The translations under genes and the position numbers were made by a program. The notes below the pieces were generated by a model, which saw only the letters and a list, made by a program, of their open reading frames with translations, made no database searches and was not told the DNA's origin. A stretch of DNA of 64,000 nt from Solirubrobacterales bacterium (GTDB lineage: Bacteria > Actinomycetota > Thermoleophilia > Solirubrobacterales > 70-9), in NCBI GenBank assembly GCA_020438355.1, contig JAGQUT010000003.1, positions 84,414-148,413 of the forward strand, read 5' to 3'. Below are positions 19,652-26,968 of this stretch, one piece after another. Position 1 is the first letter of the stretch, and every line of letters begins with the position of its first letter.

Positions 19652-21382
19652 TTGTTCAAGAGTCTGCGGGCTTCCAGGAAGCTCAAGGAAGATTTGGGAG
19701 GCAAGGAAAGGACATCCGGAAGCAGCAAGGTCAGGGTCCTCCTGGGGATTCTGGCCACCCTCGTCCTCCTGCTGGCACCGGCACAGCTGACACCGGCAGA
19801 TCCGGGCATATCAGCGCCGAACTGGGCAGAGCAGTTTCCAACCCACAGCCCAGTCGCAAGGGAAGCTGCGGCCATGGCCTATGACTACGCGAACCAGGAG
19901 ATGGTTCTTTTCGGCGGAAGAACCGGCGCGGGTCTTCATCTCGGGGACACCTGGACCTGGGACGGAGACAATTGGCGTCAATTCGCTCCCGCGCATAGTC
20001 CGTCTCCGCGCTCCGACGCCAAGATGGCGTTCGATCCCGTGACTGAGCAACTCATTCTGGTAGGCGGAACTACGAACGATGGCGCCACGGATGAGACCTG
20101 GACCTGGGACGGCAACGATTGGACTCGGCTTACACCAGCCACCCCTGCTCCTGCCCTGTTCGTGCCGAGCATTGCTACCGATTTCGCGTCGGGAAACGTG
20201 ATCCTTTTCGGCGGCAGTTCTGCCGGCACCGGAACCATGAGGAACTGGACCTGGGTCTGGGACGGCAGTACCTGGTCCGAGCTCTCACCGGCTTCGAGTC
20301 CGCCCGCCCGGTTCGGCGCAGCGATGGCATATGACCAGGAAAACCAGGAAATCGTACTTTTCGGCGGCGGAACCATGACCTCGATTTTCGACGACACCTG
20401 GATTTGGGATGGCTCGAACTGGACTCAGAAGCTGCCCCTGCGGAGCCCTCCCTTTTTCGGGGGCGGGTCGATGGCATTCAGCCCCGCCACCAACACTCTC
20501 ATTCACGTAATGGGGTCGACATGGTCATGGGACGGATCGATCTGGAGCGCACTGAATACCTGGGCGCAACCCCGAGGCCGATTCAATGCTTCGCTGGAAC
20601 TGGATCCGACCAGCGGGAAGCTTCTCTTGTTCGGAGGAAACGATGCTCAGAGCATCCGAGGTGACACCTGGACATTCGGATTCCAGAGCGACCAGGACCC
20701 CGTGACGGAGATCACCTCTCCCGCGCCGGGCGGGACTTACGAGATCGGCGAATCCGTCCCCGTGAGCTTCAGTTGCGAGGCAGCGCCCGACGGACCACCT
20801 GTGTCCACCTGCCTGGGATCGGATGGAAGTCCGGCGCCGCGAGGCTTTCTCGACACTTCGAAGCCCGGACCGGGCACCTTTACGGTCATCGCCACCGCAA
20901 GTGACGGTCAGACCGGCAGCGCCTCGATTTTTTATGAGGTCAGGAAGCCCACGCCCGAGCCGGTCTGCAGGGCGGTTCCGGGGGGCCTCACGCTGCAGAG
21001 CTTCGCGCTTCGGCCTCCTCTCGGCGATGGCCGGCAGGTTCCCGGCCTGCGGGTACGGCTGTCCGCCACCGGGCGAGTCGACGCCGAGATCGCCCCGCGG
21101 ATCGCCTATGGCTCCCCGAACGGGAGAAAGTCGTTCCGATACCGCGCGAGGACGGTTAGGGTGAACCGCGTCCGCAAGCTCCGCTACCGGCTTCCGGCAA
21201 AGGTCCGGCGGGAAATGCTCCGCTCGCAGGGAGCCGTGTACGGCAACCGGGTCACCTTCCGGCTGCGGGCAAGGATCAAGGCGCGGGGCGATCGGCCCGC
21301 TTGCTACAAGCGGCCCGAGAGTCTTGCCTACGAGCTTCCCGTGGTTGCCGTCTCGAGCCGGGTCGCGCTTCGCCGGCGGTAG
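19652..21382 (+). CDS. Secreted kelch-repeat beta-propeller protein
   Basis: Up to 576 aa. An N-terminal signal segment (VRVLLGILATLVLLLAPAQL) is followed by about six kelch-type repeats with the recurring motifs M-AYD---QE-VLFGG and DTWTWDG-NW, forming a probable beta-propeller (about residues 60-350). An Ig-like domain follows (ITSPAPGGTYEIGESVPVSF). The last 150 residues are Arg-rich, with a character like the tail of the protein at 2-1624. The TTG start at 19652 lacks a ribosome site; TTG at 19694, with AAGGA just upstream, is an alternative that still keeps the signal peptide. Function unknown, probably binding at the cell surface. Confidence 0.8.
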   Translation: MFKSLRASRKLKEDLGGKERTSGSSKVRVLLGILATLVLLLAPAQLTPADPGISAPNWAEQFPTHSPVAREAAAMAYDYANQEMVLFGGRTGAGLHLGDTWTWDGDNWRQFAPAHSPSPRSDAKMAFDPVTEQLILVGGTTNDGATDETWTWDGNDWTRLTPATPAPALFVPSIATDFASGNVILFGGSSAGTGTMRNWTWVWDGSTWSELSPASSPPARFGAAMAYDQENQEIVLFGGGTMTSIFDDTWIWDGSNWTQKLPLRSPPFFGGGSMAFSPATNTLIHVMGSTWSWDGSIWSALNTWAQPRGRFNASLELDPTSGKLLLFGGNDAQSIRGDTWTFGFQSDQDPVTEITSPAPGGTYEIGESVPVSFSCEAAPDGPPVSTCLGSDGSPAPRGFLDTSKPGPGTFTVIATASDGQTGSASIFYEVRKPTPEPVCRAVPGGLTLQSFALRPPLGDGRQVPGLRVRLSATGRVDAEIAPRIAYGSPNGRKSFRYRARTVRVNRVRKLRYRLPAKVRREMLRSQGAVYGNRVTFRLRARIKARGDRPACYKRPESLAYELPVVAVSSRVALRRR

Positions 21383-21455: not shown

Positions 21456-22466
21456 CTACTCGTCGTCGAGCAGGGCGCGGCTGAAGTCTTCGGGATCGAA
21501 GGGCCGCAGGTCCTCAAGCCCCTCTCCCACACCGATCAGCTTGACCGGAATCCCGAGCTCGGTGGCAATCGCGAGGGTGATTCCGCCTTTCGCAGTGCCG
21601 TCAAGCTTGGTCAGGACCACTCCGGATACGTCGGTCGCTTCAGCGAAAGCCTTGGCCTGACGCAAACCGTTCTGCCCTGTGGTCGCGTCAATCGAGATAA
21701 GGGTTTCGTGTGGTGCGCCGGGGATCTGCTTGTCGATTACCCGCCGGACCTTTCCGAGCTCGTCCATGAGGTTCGACTGGGTGTGGAGACGGCCGGCGGT
21801 ATCGATGATCACCACATCCGAGCCTCGGGCCTTGGCAGCGCTGATCGCATCGAAAGCAACCGAGCCCGGGTCGGCACCCTCGTTGGACCGAACGAGGTCC
21901 GCCCCGGCACGATCAGCCCAGGTCGCGAGCTGTTCTGCGGCCGCTGCCCGGTAAGTGTCGGCCGCCCCGAGAAGTACCGAGAGCCCGAACTCGTTTTTGA
22001 GATGCCAGGCGATCTTTCCGATCGAGGTGGTCTTGCCGGTTCCGTTTACCCCGGTCATCAGCACGATCGCGGGGTCCTGGGTCAGATTGATCGGAGCACG
22101 ATTGGTCGAAGCGATCTCGGTCAGAAGCCCGATAAGACGCTCCTTGATCGCCGCACCGTCGGGTGGCACCGCACCCGAGTCAACTTCGTACTCGAGCTTC
22201 TCGACAACCTGGGCCGTGGTCGTGGCGCCGGCGTCGGCGAGAATCAATGCTTCCTCCAGCCGCTCCCACGTCTCGTCATCGATCCGGTCGAAGAGGCTTG
22301 AACCGATCTCCTCGGTCAGTGCCCGGCGGCTCTTGGAGAGGCTCTCTCGCAGACGCCGGAATGCGCCGACCTTCTTCGGAGCTTCCTCCTCGGCGGCGGG
22401 TGGCGGCGCTGTGTCCGGGACCACACGGTCACCGAGATCGAGAATGTCGTTCCAGGTCGTACTCAT
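21456..22466 (-). CDS. ftsY: SRP receptor FtsY
   Basis: 336 aa. FtsY is the membrane-associated receptor for SRP. A short acidic N-terminal region (AAEEEAPKK) stands in for the long A domain of enterobacteria. The N domain is followed by the G domain with Walker A GVNGTGKTTSIGK, AADTYRAAAAEQL, DTAGRLHTQ and LTKLDGTAKGG. It follows smc by about 44 bases; the order rnc-smc-ftsY is conserved in many Gram-positive bacteria. Confidence 0.97.
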   Translation of the reverse strand: MSTTWNDILDLGDRVVPDTAPPPAAEEEAPKKVGAFRRLRESLSKSRRALTEEIGSSLFDRIDDETWERLEEALILADAGATTTAQVVEKLEYEVDSGAVPPDGAAIKERLIGLLTEIASTNRAPINLTQDPAIVLMTGVNGTGKTTSIGKIAWHLKNEFGLSVLLGAADTYRAAAAEQLATWADRAGADLVRSNEGADPGSVAFDAISAAKARGSDVVIIDTAGRLHTQSNLMDELGKVRRVIDKQIPGAPHETLISIDATTGQNGLRQAKAFAEATDVSGVVLTKLDGTAKGGITLAIATELGIPVKLIGVGEGLEDLRPFDPEDFSRALLDDE

Positions 22467-22510: not shown

Positions 22511-24856
22511 TCAGGCCGCTTCGAGCGCGGTGCCTTCGAGGGCGGTTACGCCCTTGGGAAGGCGGCGCGAAATCACCTTGGTGACACCATCCCCGCCCAT
22601 GCTTACGCCGTAGAGGACATCGGCCGCGTCCATGGTCAGCTTCTGGTGGGTGACGATCACGAACTGGGTCCGGTCGGAGAACCGCCGGACGAGTTCAAGG
22701 AAGCGGTTGATGTTCGCGTCGTCGAGCGCGGCCTCAACCTCGTCGAGGATGTAGAACGGGCAGGGACGGGCCAGGAACACGGCGAAGACGAATGCGAGCG
22801 CCGTCATCGCCTTCTCGCCGCCGGATAGCAGGCTCATCTGGCGCATCCTCTTGCCCTGCGGAGTCACCTCAAGTTCGACCCCGAAATCAGACTCATGGGG
22901 ACGCCGTGGATCCTCTTCGTCCTCCATGTCCTCATCTTCGACTTCGGCCTCCTCGCCCTCGGCGGCCGGCTTCGGTACCGGGCGGAGGTCAACCGAGCGC
23001 AGTCGGCCGGTACCGCCCGGGAATAGCTGGGCGATCATCTCCTCGAAGTTCTTCGCGGTGGCCTCGAAAGTCTCGTCGAATGAACGCTTGATCTCGGCGT
23101 CGATGTCGCGGATCACGCCTTCGAGCTCGCGCATCGCGCGCTCGGTGTCTTCACGCTGTGAGACCAGCTGCTCGACGTGCTCGAGGGCCTCCTCGTACTC
23201 CTTCTGGGCCAGCGGATTCACGGGGCCGAGCCTCTCGCGCCTTGCCCGGAGGTTGTGGAGGCGCTTCTCGATCTGTTCGCGCTCCTCCTCTTCCAGTTCC
23301 TCTTCGGGTTCGGGTATCTCGACCTGGAGCTTCTCGGCGATACGCGCGAGCTCGCCGGCTGCCTCGGCCCGGCGGTCACCCAGGTGGGCCGCCTCGACCT
23401 CGGCGCTGGTCACCTGCTCGGCAACCGCCCGCAGCTTGCCCTGTATCTCGACTTCGGAATCTGAGCAGGCCTTGAGTTCGGCCGAGATCTCGTCGGCATC
23501 GCCCTGGTCACCGATTACCGTTCGCTCGGCGCGGGAGACCCGCTCGCGGATCGCAAGGGCGGTCTGGCCAGCCGCGGTCTCGATCGTTGCGATCAGTCCG
23601 GCCAGGCTTTCGACCTCGGCCATCTTCTCTCCGAGCCGTTCACGATGCCTTTCGCCAAGCAGGCTTTCGGCCCGGCGGGCATGGGTCGTAGCCCTCTCGG
23701 CACCCTTGTGAACATCGGCCAGTGCTTCCAGACGCTTCGACTCCGGTCCTTCGCCCTTGGCCTGCCGCAGGCCTTCCGCCGCAGTCGCCAGTCCGGCATC
23801 GACCTCGGCGAGTTCCTGCACAAGGTGCTTGGCCCTCTCGGACGCGCTGCCGCTGCTGCCCAGGTCCAGGGTCAGGGGTGCCAGTTCAAGCCGCAGCTCC
23901 TCGAGGCGACTGCCCAGCCGGCGTCCCTGCTCGGCAATCCTGGAGGCCTCGATCGAGACTTTCTCGGAACCTGATCTGAGCCCGTTCAGGATCCCCCAGA
24001 TCGCAGTGCGTTCCCGGTCGCGTTCGGCGAACCTTTCCTCGGCAGCCCGGCGGCGTTCCGAGACGGCCGACAGTTCTTTCTCTAGCCCGTCGCGCACCTT
24101 CCTGGCCTTGTCTGCTGAAGCTCTGGCCTGTTCGAGTCGTGCCTCACCGAAGCGAAGTTCCTCGGCGACCAGCCGGCTTTTCAGCTCGAGCTCCTGTTTC
24201 TCGATCCGCGCGCCGATCTCGGCCGAGTTGGCCTGTTGCTTCAGCGGCCGGAGTGCCTTCCGGGCCTCCCGCTCCACATCGAGGGCACGATCGAGGTTGT
24301 CCCTTGTGGCCAGCAACTTCAACTCCGCTCGGCGGCGGCGCTTTCGGTACTTGCCGAGACCGGCCGCTTCCTCGATCAGCATCCGCCGCTCGCGAGGCTT
24401 GGAGTGGACGATCGAGTCGACCCGCCCCTGACTGATGACCGAATGCATCTCGCGGCCCAGGTTGGCGTCGGAGAGCAGTTCGATGATGTCTGAAAGCCGG
24501 CACCTGGCACCGTTCATCCAGTACCCGCCGTCACCGTTCCGGTCGAGTTTCCGGGTGATCGCGATCTCGGTGAAGTCATCACCCAGGTGGCCTTCGGAAT
24601 TGTCGATGACCACTTCAACTTCGGCTTCGGAGCGGGCACCGACGTTCTTGCCGCCAACCGAGATCACATCCTGCATCGAGGTTCCGCGGATCGCGCCGGG
24701 ACTCTGCTCGCCGAGTGCCCAGAGCACGGCGTCCGTGATGTTCGACTTGCCTGAGCCGTTCGGGCCCACGATCACGCTGACCCCAGGCGAGAACGCCAGT
24801 TCAGTCTTCTCCGGGAAGGACTTGAAGCCCTTCATGGTCACCGAGCGAAGGTACAT
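22511..24856 (-). CDS. smc: SMC chromosome-segregation ATPase, short form without a recognisable hinge
   Basis: 781 aa, against about 1150-1200 for bacterial SMC. The head is complete: Walker A GPNGSGKSN (31-39), Q-loop ISQGRVDSIV (Q143), signature LSGGEKAMTALAF (from 677), Walker B FYILDEVEAAL (D705, E706) and H-loop VIVTHQ. The C-terminal arm carries family landmarks LGPVNPLAQKEYEE and FDETFEATAKNFEE. Between about 170 and 620 everything is charged, coiled-coil-like sequence; the glycine-rich globular hinge is absent, and there is no CxxC zinc hook. An acidic insert (EGEEAEVEDEDMEDEED) lies before the signature. The frame is unbroken. The start MYLRSVTMKGFKSF is chosen; a GTG at 24907 would add 17 residues. 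Confidence 0.9.
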   Translation of the reverse strand: MYLRSVTMKGFKSFPEKTELAFSPGVSVIVGPNGSGKSNITDAVLWALGEQSPGAIRGTSMQDVISVGGKNVGARSEAEVEVVIDNSEGHLGDDFTEIAITRKLDRNGDGGYWMNGARCRLSDIIELLSDANLGREMHSVISQGRVDSIVHSKPRERRMLIEEAAGLGKYRKRRRRAELKLLATRDNLDRALDVEREARKALRPLKQQANSAEIGARIEKQELELKSRLVAEELRFGEARLEQARASADKARKVRDGLEKELSAVSERRRAAEERFAERDRERTAIWGILNGLRSGSEKVSIEASRIAEQGRRLGSRLEELRLELAPLTLDLGSSGSASERAKHLVQELAEVDAGLATAAEGLRQAKGEGPESKRLEALADVHKGAERATTHARRAESLLGERHRERLGEKMAEVESLAGLIATIETAAGQTALAIRERVSRAERTVIGDQGDADEISAELKACSDSEVEIQGKLRAVAEQVTSAEVEAAHLGDRRAEAAGELARIAEKLQVEIPEPEEELEEEEREQIEKRLHNLRARRERLGPVNPLAQKEYEEALEHVEQLVSQREDTERAMRELEGVIRDIDAEIKRSFDETFEATAKNFEEMIAQLFPGGTGRLRSVDLRPVPKPAAEGEEAEVEDEDMEDEEDPRRPHESDFGVELEVTPQGKRMRQMSLLSGGEKAMTALAFVFAVFLARPCPFYILDEVEAALDDANINRFLELVRRFSDRTQFVIVTHQKLTMDAADVLYGVSMGGDGVTKVISRRLPKGVTALEGTALEAA

Positions 24857-24977: not shown

Positions 24978-25721
24978 TCACCCGTCGAGGGTTCGAAGCG
25001 CGACCTCGGCGGCCGCCTGTCCCGCCGCCTTCTTGCTGCGGCCCTCACCCCTGCCGATCTCGGAATCCCGGTAGATGACCGCCACCTCGTAAGTCCTCTG
25101 GTGTGCCGGCCCTCGAGCGCTGACGACCTCGTAGGAAACCGTCTCACCATGACGGGCAGCCGTTTCCTGGAGTGCCGACTTGAAGTCCGTCTGGTTCTCC
25201 CTGACCTCGCTGATGCGGGGCCTGAAAGCAGCCACGACAGCTGATGCGGTGACTCCGAAGCCGTAGTGGAGATAGCAGGCACCGATCAGCGCCTCGGTGA
25301 TCTCGGGCAGCGGCCTTTCGCCTTCGAGCAGGAGCCGGGCAGGGGTCTGCTTGCCGTCCGGCTGTCCCGGGTCCGCTTCCAGCAACATTTCGGGGATACC
25401 AAGCTCGCGGCCGACCTCGGCGCATGAGGTGCCACTGACGGCCTGGTTGAGGATCTTGGTCAGGGCCCCGGCGTTCTTGTCAGGCAGGCTCCTGTACAGC
25501 TCGTCTGCGACAGCGAGCCCCAGGACGCTGTCCCCGAGCAGGGCGAGCCGCTCGTAGGAATCGGTCCGGTCCGCCGTCCACGACGAGTGAGTGAGGGCGG
25601 GGCCTCTGAGTTCGTCCGGCAGGCCTTCGATCAGGGAGGAGAGATCTCCGCCATCGGAGGCGTCACCTGAACCCGCGCCTGCGGCGCGATCACGCGACCG
25701 CTTTAGCCACGACAAAGTCAA
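24978..25721 (-). CDS. rnc: Ribonuclease III with altered active-site residues
   Basis: 247 aa. RNase III cuts double-stranded RNA. The N-terminal nuclease domain has YERLALLGDSVL (57-68) and EITEALIGACYL; the C-terminal dsRNA-binding domain runs from about 177 (DFKSALQETAARHG) to GEGRSKKAAGQAAAEVAL. Compared with E. coli, the residue for E41 is Ala60, the D114 position is Glu140, and the E65 region reads KNAGALTK; D45 (Asp64) and E117 (Glu143) are kept. The TTG start overlaps the end of acpP by 32 bases; a second TTG is two codons later. Confidence 0.88.
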   Translation of the reverse strand: MTLSWLKRSRDRAAGAGSGDASDGGDLSSLIEGLPDELRGPALTHSSWTADRTDSYERLALLGDSVLGLAVADELYRSLPDKNAGALTKILNQAVSGTSCAEVGRELGIPEMLLEADPGQPDGKQTPARLLLEGERPLPEITEALIGACYLHYGFGVTASAVVAAFRPRISEVRENQTDFKSALQETAARHGETVSYEVVSARGPAHQRTYEVAVIYRDSEIGRGEGRSKKAAGQAAAEVALRTLDG

Positions 25722-25948: not shown

Positions 25949-26968
25949 TCAGACGTCCGGGACGACCGCGCCCCGGTTGGCACCTACCCGGTGAAGCATC
26001 TCCTCGGTCAGTCCGGGAGCATCGACCCGGGCCGAGCGGGCAGCAAGACGGACCGCATTGGCTACCCCTTCGGGGCCTGAGGATCCGTGGCCGACAACTG
26101 TGGTCCGGCGAAGACCAAGCAGGATCGCCCCGCCCGTGGTGTCCGGGTGAAGGTCACGCCTGAGGCCACCCAGGGCCGGCTTCAGCATGAGGCCCCCGGC
26201 TGCGGAAAGAGGATTCTTCCGGGCCGCGTCAGAAATTCCGCCCACCACGGTCTTCACGGTGCCTTCCATCGCCTTCAGCACGATGTTTCCGGTGAACCCG
26301 TCGGTCACGATCACGTCAGCCCCCGCGCCCGGGACGTCCCTCCCCTCGACGTTGCCGATGAAGCTGAACTCTGAAGCACCCTCAAGAGCCTGATGGGCTT
26401 CGACGACTTCCTCCTTGCCCTTGCCGGCTTCCTCGCCGACCGACAGGATGCCGATCTCGGGGTTCTCGATTCCCATCACCGACTTCGAGAAGGCCGCCCC
26501 CAGCCACGCAAACTGCACCAGGTGCTGGGCCCTGACGTCAAGGTTCGCCCCGACATCGAGGAACAGGACGGTTCGGCCCGGCAGCGGCACCTGAGCGGCG
26601 AGAGCTGGCCGCTTCACCCCGCGTGAGCGCTTCAGACCAAAGGTCGCGGCGGCCATCGTGGCCCCGGTCGAACCGAGACTCACGACCGCCTCGGAATTTC
26701 CGGCGGAAACGTCGGCGACGGCCCTTACGATCGAGGAGTCCGGCCGGGACCTGACCGAGGGGACCGGGTCATCTTCATTGGTGATCTGGTCCGTGGTGTC
26801 GATTACCTCGACACCCTCCAGGCCCTTCGTGTCAATTTCCGCCTGAGGCCCGAAAACCCTGATCCGGATTCCGTCGGCCGCGGCGAGACGAATGCCTTCT
26901 GACAGCACGTCGAAGCCGTTCTCGACTCCGAGACCGTCCAGCGCGACCGTAGTCCCGCCTGAATTCAA
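25949..26968 (-). CDS. plsX: Phosphate acyltransferase PlsX
   Basis: 339 aa from a TTG. PlsX converts acyl-ACP to acyl-phosphate for phospholipid synthesis and works with ACP encoded 13 bases downstream. Family landmarks are LDVGANLDVRAQHLVQFA, GILSVGEE, FIGNVEGRDV, VIVTDGFTGNIVLKAMEG and HGSSGPEG. The normally invariant N-terminal DAMGGD reads DGLGVE, and the usual GNTGA reads GSTGA. The start has only a weak upstream purine site. Confidence 0.93.
   Translation of the reverse strand: MNSGGTTVALDGLGVENGFDVLSEGIRLAAADGIRIRVFGPQAEIDTKGLEGVEVIDTTDQITNEDDPVPSVRSRPDSSIVRAVADVSAGNSEAVVSLGSTGATMAAATFGLKRSRGVKRPALAAQVPLPGRTVLFLDVGANLDVRAQHLVQFAWLGAAFSKSVMGIENPEIGILSVGEEAGKGKEEVVEAHQALEGASEFSFIGNVEGRDVPGAGADVIVTDGFTGNIVLKAMEGTVKTVVGGISDAARKNPLSAAGGLMLKPALGGLRRDLHPDTTGGAILLGLRRTTVVGHGSSGPEGVANAVRLAARSARVDAPGLTEEMLHRVGANRGAVVPDV

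What the first reader, a model, noticed from the sequence alone, without database searches (positions are those of the whole stretch)
22511..24856. SMC without a hinge at the conserved rnc-smc-ftsY locus
The only SMC in this window has intact Walker A, Q-loop, signature, Walker B and H-loop, plus the C-terminal arm landmarks. Yet it is about 781 aa and has no globular hinge between the arms, and no CxxC hook. Canonical SMCs dimerise through the hinge; without it this protein would need another way to pair, or work with a different partner. The reading frame is intact and the genomic place is that of the housekeeping SMC, which argues against a decayed copy.
Basis: partly seen in the sequence, partly recalled or inferred. 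Interest (0 to 1): 0.75.

Follow-up and report, generated by a model that had tools for sequence, protein, structure and literature searches.

The report
Chromosome condensin that lost its hinge
In a family of soil and freshwater actinobacteria the protein that organises the chromosome, SMC, has lost the hinge by which its two halves are normally joined, while its partner proteins and its place in the genome stay the same; similar losses happened several times in the phylum, which makes it possible to ask whether the hinge is needed at all.

Summary
The ORF at 22511-24856 (-) is the only SMC in its genome, an above-cut-off SMC_prok_B equivalog of 781 aa between rnc and ftsY, with a complete ATPase head, no hinge and no CxxC hook. 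It is not an assembly collapse. In this family (Solirubrobacterales, probably GTDB '67-14') 46 of 50 genomes have no hinge anywhere, including a single-contig genome. Only genera g3, g8 and g10 keep a ~1080-aa hinged SMC. In 24 complete hingeless orthologues the arm landmarks are spaced within 3 residues, and dN/dS is 0.04-0.06. AlphaFold2 gives a helical arm ending in a short turn (residues 367-371). ScpA, ScpB and, in most genomes, ParB are kept. Hinge loss recurs in Actinomycetota: the head tree needs 7 changes (5 forced by strong branches), and one Thermoleophilia family shows graded erosion (128, ~100, ~50 hinge residues). One oceanic actinobacterial hinge-less clade was published in 2025 (PMC12153180), so the kind is not wholly new. 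Host lineage, intact partners, recurrence and intermediates are what this adds. Best explanation: a working Smc-ScpAB condensin held together by kleisin, head engagement and arm or tip contacts. How the tips pair, if they do, is untested.

The parts
22511..24856 (-). hinge-less smc, 781 aa (ATG start; GTG-started frame reaches 24907)
   Evidence: SMC_N, SMC_prok_B equivalog above cut-off; no SMC_hinge
24359..24856 (-). N-terminal half of the ATPase head (residues 1-166; Walker A, Q-loop)
   Evidence: model, motif positions
23870..24358 (-). ascending arm helix (residues 167-329)
   Evidence: AlphaFold2 model m133374eeb7d7
23846..23869 (-). break in the ascending arm (residues 330-337), aligned with a likely break in the arm of hinged relatives
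23759..23845 (-). tip helix, N side (residues 338-366)
   Evidence: pLDDT above 90 over most of it
23744..23758 (-). turn that stands where the hinge and distal arms should be (residues 367-371)
   Evidence: variable, with a small indel, in the alignment
23513..23743 (-). tip helix, C side (residues 372-448), conserved RRxExLLGxR
23024..23512 (-). descending arm (residues 449-611) with the GPVNP joint at 23213-23227
22514..23023 (-). C-terminal half of the ATPase head (residues 612-781; signature, Walker B, H-loop)
24978..25721 (-). rnc, ribonuclease III, upstream neighbour
   Evidence: Pfam
21456..22466 (-). ftsY, downstream neighbour
   Evidence: Pfam SRP54
25949..26968 (-). plsX (FA_synthesis)
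   Evidence: Pfam

Best explanation
This is the housekeeping chromosome-organising SMC of a Solirubrobacterales family, descended from a normal hinged SMC by removal of the hinge together with the distal part of both arms, most simply once in the ancestor of nine genera. It still works with the ordinary kleisin ScpA and with ScpB, and is probably still loaded by ParB. Inferred mechanism: two hinge-less subunits are held together by ScpA (one end on the neck of one subunit, the other on the cap of the second), by ATP-dependent engagement of the heads, and by side-by-side packing of the shortened arms or their helical tips, so the complex acts as a two-armed clamp rather than a ring locked by a hinge. 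Shown: hinge absent, deletion boundaries, partners encoded, purifying selection, fixed arm length. Inferred: that the protein pairs through arms or tips, and that it still organises DNA.
For: No hinge by Pfam or by the relatives' hinge profile in 46 of 50 family genomes, against 4 hinged at E about 1e-44 to 1e-49. Only SMC in the genome, at the rnc-smc-ftsY locus; same locus in the single-contig genome G020. ScpA and ScpB in 43 of 43 relatives at least 90% complete, and in this genome next to each other just beyond the window's right edge. ParB in 38 of 41 relatives. dN/dS 0.04-0.06 overall and 0.07-0.11 in the tip; landmark spacing 226-229 and 146-148 residues in all 24 sequences. The model has no globular domain in the arm and aligns to SMC heads with Z about 24. 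Published precedent: in B. subtilis the Smc hinge can be replaced by the unrelated Rad50 zinc hook with normal growth, so the hinge fold itself is not required (PMC5344682).
Against: In that experiment a dimerisation module was still present; nothing here shows that the hinge-less protein pairs at its tip. The tip matches no solved fold significantly, has no profile similarity to the hinge, and its conserved motif partly pre-exists in the arm of hinged relatives, so it need not be a new dimerisation site. Dimers could not be predicted with the tools. ParB was not found in this particular draft genome.
Confidence: 0.6

Rival explanations
1. The arm tip has become a new dimerisation module: the helical hairpin around residues 338-448 packs with its copy in the second subunit, so a closed tripartite ring is kept without a hinge fold.
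For: The tip is predicted with high confidence (pLDDT 87, above 90 over most of 340-400). Residues 395-408 are strongly conserved across both hinge-less subclades. Arm length is fixed within a few residues. The hinge fold is replaceable in B. subtilis (PMC5344682).
Against: The conserved motif aligns with an arm segment already conserved in hinged relatives; tip conservation is lower than that of the heads and tip dN/dS is higher; no known dimerisation fold matched.
Confidence: 0.35
2. The protein has left the condensin role and works as a repair ATPase in the manner of Rad50/SbcC or RecN.
For: Those proteins also have SMC-like heads and no SMC hinge; Rad50 head structures are among the structural matches.
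Against: Equivalog-level SMC score, SMC heads rank above Rad50, no CxxC hook, ScpA and ScpB retained, smc locus retained, no other SMC to do the housekeeping job.
Confidence: 0.07
3. Artefact or decaying gene: assembly collapse, or pseudogene of a hinged SMC.
For: The genome is a draft in 133 contigs.
Against: Same architecture in 24 complete sequences from independent genomes, one a single contig; dN/dS 0.04-0.06.
Confidence: 0.01

Closest known systems
Bacterial Smc (Smc-ScpAB condensin; TIGR02168)
   Same: ATPase head, arm, GPVNP joint, single copy, rnc-smc-ftsY locus, ScpA and ScpB encoded
   Different: no hinge; both arms shortened (781 aa against about 1080 in hinged relatives of the same family)
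Oceanic 'hinge-less SMC' clade in Actinobacteria (PMC12153180, 2025)
   Same: actinobacterial SMC without hinge and without CxxC, not found beside a normal SMC
   Different: that clade comes from ocean metagenomes, host lineage unresolved, partners and intermediates not described in the passages read; whether it equals any lineage seen here could not be tested
Rad50/SbcC
   Same: SMC-like head and arm without an SMC hinge
   Different: Rad50 pairs through a CxxC zinc hook and works with Mre11/SbcD; no CxxC here, and ScpA/ScpB are encoded
RecN
   Same: short SMC-like protein without the canonical hinge (from general knowledge)
   Different: a separate protein family with a repair role, other locus and no kleisin (general knowledge)
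B. subtilis Smc with shortened arms or zinc hook (engineered; PMC5344682)
   Same: hinge fold not essential; shorter arms can work
   Different: engineered, and always with some dimerisation domain

Membership tests
Bacterial Smc (SMC_prok_B) | equivalog model above cut-off | tested here: met
   TIGR02168 628.9 bits, cut-off 567.35
Bacterial Smc (SMC_prok_B) | Walker A, Q-loop, signature, Walker B, H-loop in one chain | tested here: met
Bacterial Smc (SMC_prok_B) | hinge domain PF06470 between the arms | tested here: not met
   this is the point of the finding, so it is filed as a hinge-less variant and not as a canonical member
Bacterial Smc (SMC_prok_B) | kleisin ScpA and ScpB encoded in the genome | tested here: met
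Bacterial Smc (SMC_prok_B) | homodimer that binds ScpAB and organises DNA | not testable with these tools
   needs biochemistry or dimer prediction
Rad50/SbcC | CxxC zinc hook at the arm tip | tested here: not met
   no CxxC in any of the 24 sequences
Rad50/SbcC | best model of the chain is a Rad50/SbcC model | tested here: not met
   Rad50 models score at most 95.7 bits, far below their cut-offs
Oceanic hinge-less SMC clade (PMC12153180) | belongs to the published cluster 9 clade | not tested

The most novel reading that the evidence does not exclude
Several actinobacterial lineages independently gave up the hinge and with it the locked tripartite ring, and run a condensin whose two SMC subunits are joined only at the heads and by the kleisin, so a closed hinge is not required for chromosome organisation.
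Probability: 0.35. Interest if true: 0.9.

Novelty: new variant of a known kind. Interest (0 to 1): 0.7.

Why it matters
Models of SMC action assume that two subunits are locked together by the hinge. Natural condensins that kept kleisin, ScpB and locus but dropped the hinge, repeatedly and in one family by visible steps, let one test whether ring closure at the hinge is needed for loading and loop formation.

Tried and rejected
Assembly collapse, pseudogene and second SMC were tested and rejected. A free-standing hinge protein elsewhere in the genome: none in 46 family genomes. Tip as a hinge remnant: weak HMM echoes (at most 6.5 bits) were not borne out by profile-profile comparison (probability 0.2%). 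Known fold for the tip: Foldseek on the tip alone gave nothing at E <= 0.001 and the sequence profile hit mainly designed helical proteins, which is uninformative. Zinc hook: no CxxC. PF06470 alone is not proof of absence: G214 and G309 are PF06470 misses that carry a hinge by the relatives' profile, so the wider counts rest on that profile. Several hinge-negative genomes in the phylum sample have fragmentary SMCs and were not counted. Phrase searches for hinge-less SMC found one relevant paper.

Full report
Observation. It scores above the equivalog cut-off for chromosome segregation protein SMC (628.9 against 567.35 bits), carries every head motif and the GPVNP joint, and lacks PF06470 and any CxxC. 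It lies between rnc and ftsY, with plsX and ffh nearby. The genome (2.62 Mb in 133 contigs, 96.7% complete) has no hinge hit at all, while 10 of 14 control genomes ring, and no second full-length SMC; one suspicious contig-edge fragment reads as the start of RecF.

Not an artefact. In 61 genomes (this one and 60 relatives) the same ~780-aa protein recurs throughout the genus and in most other genera of the family. A hinge profile built from 17 close relatives finds a hinge in only 4 of 50 family genomes, all in genera g3, g8 and g10 (three in ~1080-aa frames, the fourth in a contig-broken frame; E 1e-44 to 1e-49), and none elsewhere, free-standing copies included. G020 is a single 3.42-Mb contig with the hinge-less gene in the canonical place. 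In 24 complete sequences (this one and 23 orthologues 52-95% identical to it) the spacing from EEAAGLG to LLG is 226-229 residues and from LLG to GPVNP 146-148; dN/dS to the three nearest relatives is 0.04-0.06 overall and 0.07-0.11 in the tip. The gene is under purifying selection.

Anatomy. Aligned with hinged relatives of its own family, the protein lacks the whole hinge and the distal part of both arms. AlphaFold2 on the 24-row alignment (mean pLDDT 74.8) gives helices 167-329, 338-366, 372-448, 451-510, 523-543 and 550-611, with no globular domain in the arm. The tip alone (residues 300-480) is predicted at pLDDT 87 with the same helices and a turn at 367-371. Breaks near 330-337 and 449-454 align with gap- and glycine-rich spots in the arms of hinged relatives. 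The tip has no significant structural match and no profile similarity to the hinge. Whole-model matches are SMC heads (Z about 24). I therefore read the tip as a plain arm hairpin; pairing of the helices is inferred, since no coordinates were available.

Partners. ScpA and ScpB are found in 43 of 43 relatives that are at least 90% complete, hinge-less or not. In this genome they lie in the order trpS-scpA-scpB-rluB just right of the window (trpS and rluB named from sequence by eye). ParB is found in 38 of 41 relatives; the three without it, G000 included, are drafts in over 100 contigs. The loading and kleisin system is kept; only the hinge is gone.

Origin and recurrence. On a tree built without the arm-tip and hinge columns, the hinge-less proteins of the family need two changes, but the three hinged genera branch with weak support (83/70) and one clade of all hinge-less proteins is not rejected (p-AU 0.25). 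Since both hinge-less subclades share the same gap and spacing, one loss is the simpler reading. Across the phylum 58 of 396 genomes have no PF06470 hit. SMC frames were checked and 104 proteins scored with a hinge profile: hinged proteins score 38 bits or more, hinge-less ones 6.5 or less (the profile was built from the hinged set, so its high scores there are partly by construction). Hinge-less SMCs occur in families f1, f10 (~1018 aa), f13 (736-790), f31 (885-893), f38 (916), part of f8 (722), f54 and one f39 genome. A head-only tree needs 7 changes, at least 5 forced by strong branches; it is a quick tree with some long branches (f39, f54), so 5 is the safer number. In f8 (same class as the window) one sees steps: 1172 aa with a 128-residue hinge, 826-890 aa with short arms and ~100 hinge residues, then 722 aa with 51-58 residues left. 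ScpA is present in nearly all these lineages too; the f39 genome G136, a single contig, shows none.

Mechanism. Shown: absence of hinge and hook, partners encoded, selection, fixed arm length. Known: in B. subtilis the hinge fold can be swapped for the Rad50 zinc hook with normal growth, whereas arm length is critical (PMC5344682); a hook can also be replaced by the MukB hinge in yeast Rad50 (PMC6969161). Inferred: kleisin bridging, head engagement and arm or tip packing hold the two subunits together. Whether the tips pair (closed ring without a hinge) or not (open clamp) cannot be settled here; I give 0.35 to a genuine tip dimer.

Comparison and novelty. One hinge-less actinobacterial clade from ocean metagenomes was published in 2025, with lineage unresolved (PMC12153180); phrase searches found no other report. 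The present case is a new variant of a known kind: it fixes the trait in identified genomes, shows intact partners and locus, a hinged sister group, several independent losses and intermediate stages.

Noticed in passing
L196, L115, L197, L216-L220 (family f8): Graded shortening of the arms and erosion of the hinge within one Thermoleophilia family: 1172 aa with full hinge, 826-890 aa with ~100 hinge residues, 722 aa with 51-58.
   Followed up: yes
L209-L211 (family f10): SMCs of about 1018 aa without a detectable hinge: arms seem to keep near-normal length, so here perhaps only the hinge was lost.
   Followed up: partly
L214 (G136, single-contig genome, family f39): 1115-aa SMC without hinge in a genome that also shows no ScpA, on a very long branch; may be a different SMC system.
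   Followed up: partly
L198-L208 (families f13, f31, f38): Hinge-less SMCs in small, low-GC (0.27-0.44) actinobacterial genomes; could include the lineage of the published oceanic clade, not tested.
   Followed up: partly
window 19652-21382 (+): Gene with Kelch-like repeats (FGG...DTWTWDG) on the opposite strand between ffh and ftsY.
   Followed up: no
L124, L134: Records titled Bifidobacterium breve (CAMDBT010000009.1, CAMCVN010000038.1) carry SMCs that match Solirubrobacterales ones; probably mislabelled MAGs.
   Followed up: no
L212 (G214), L213 (G309): Hinges missed by PF06470 but found by a profile from relatives; PF06470 alone undercounts hinges in Actinomycetota.
   Followed up: yes
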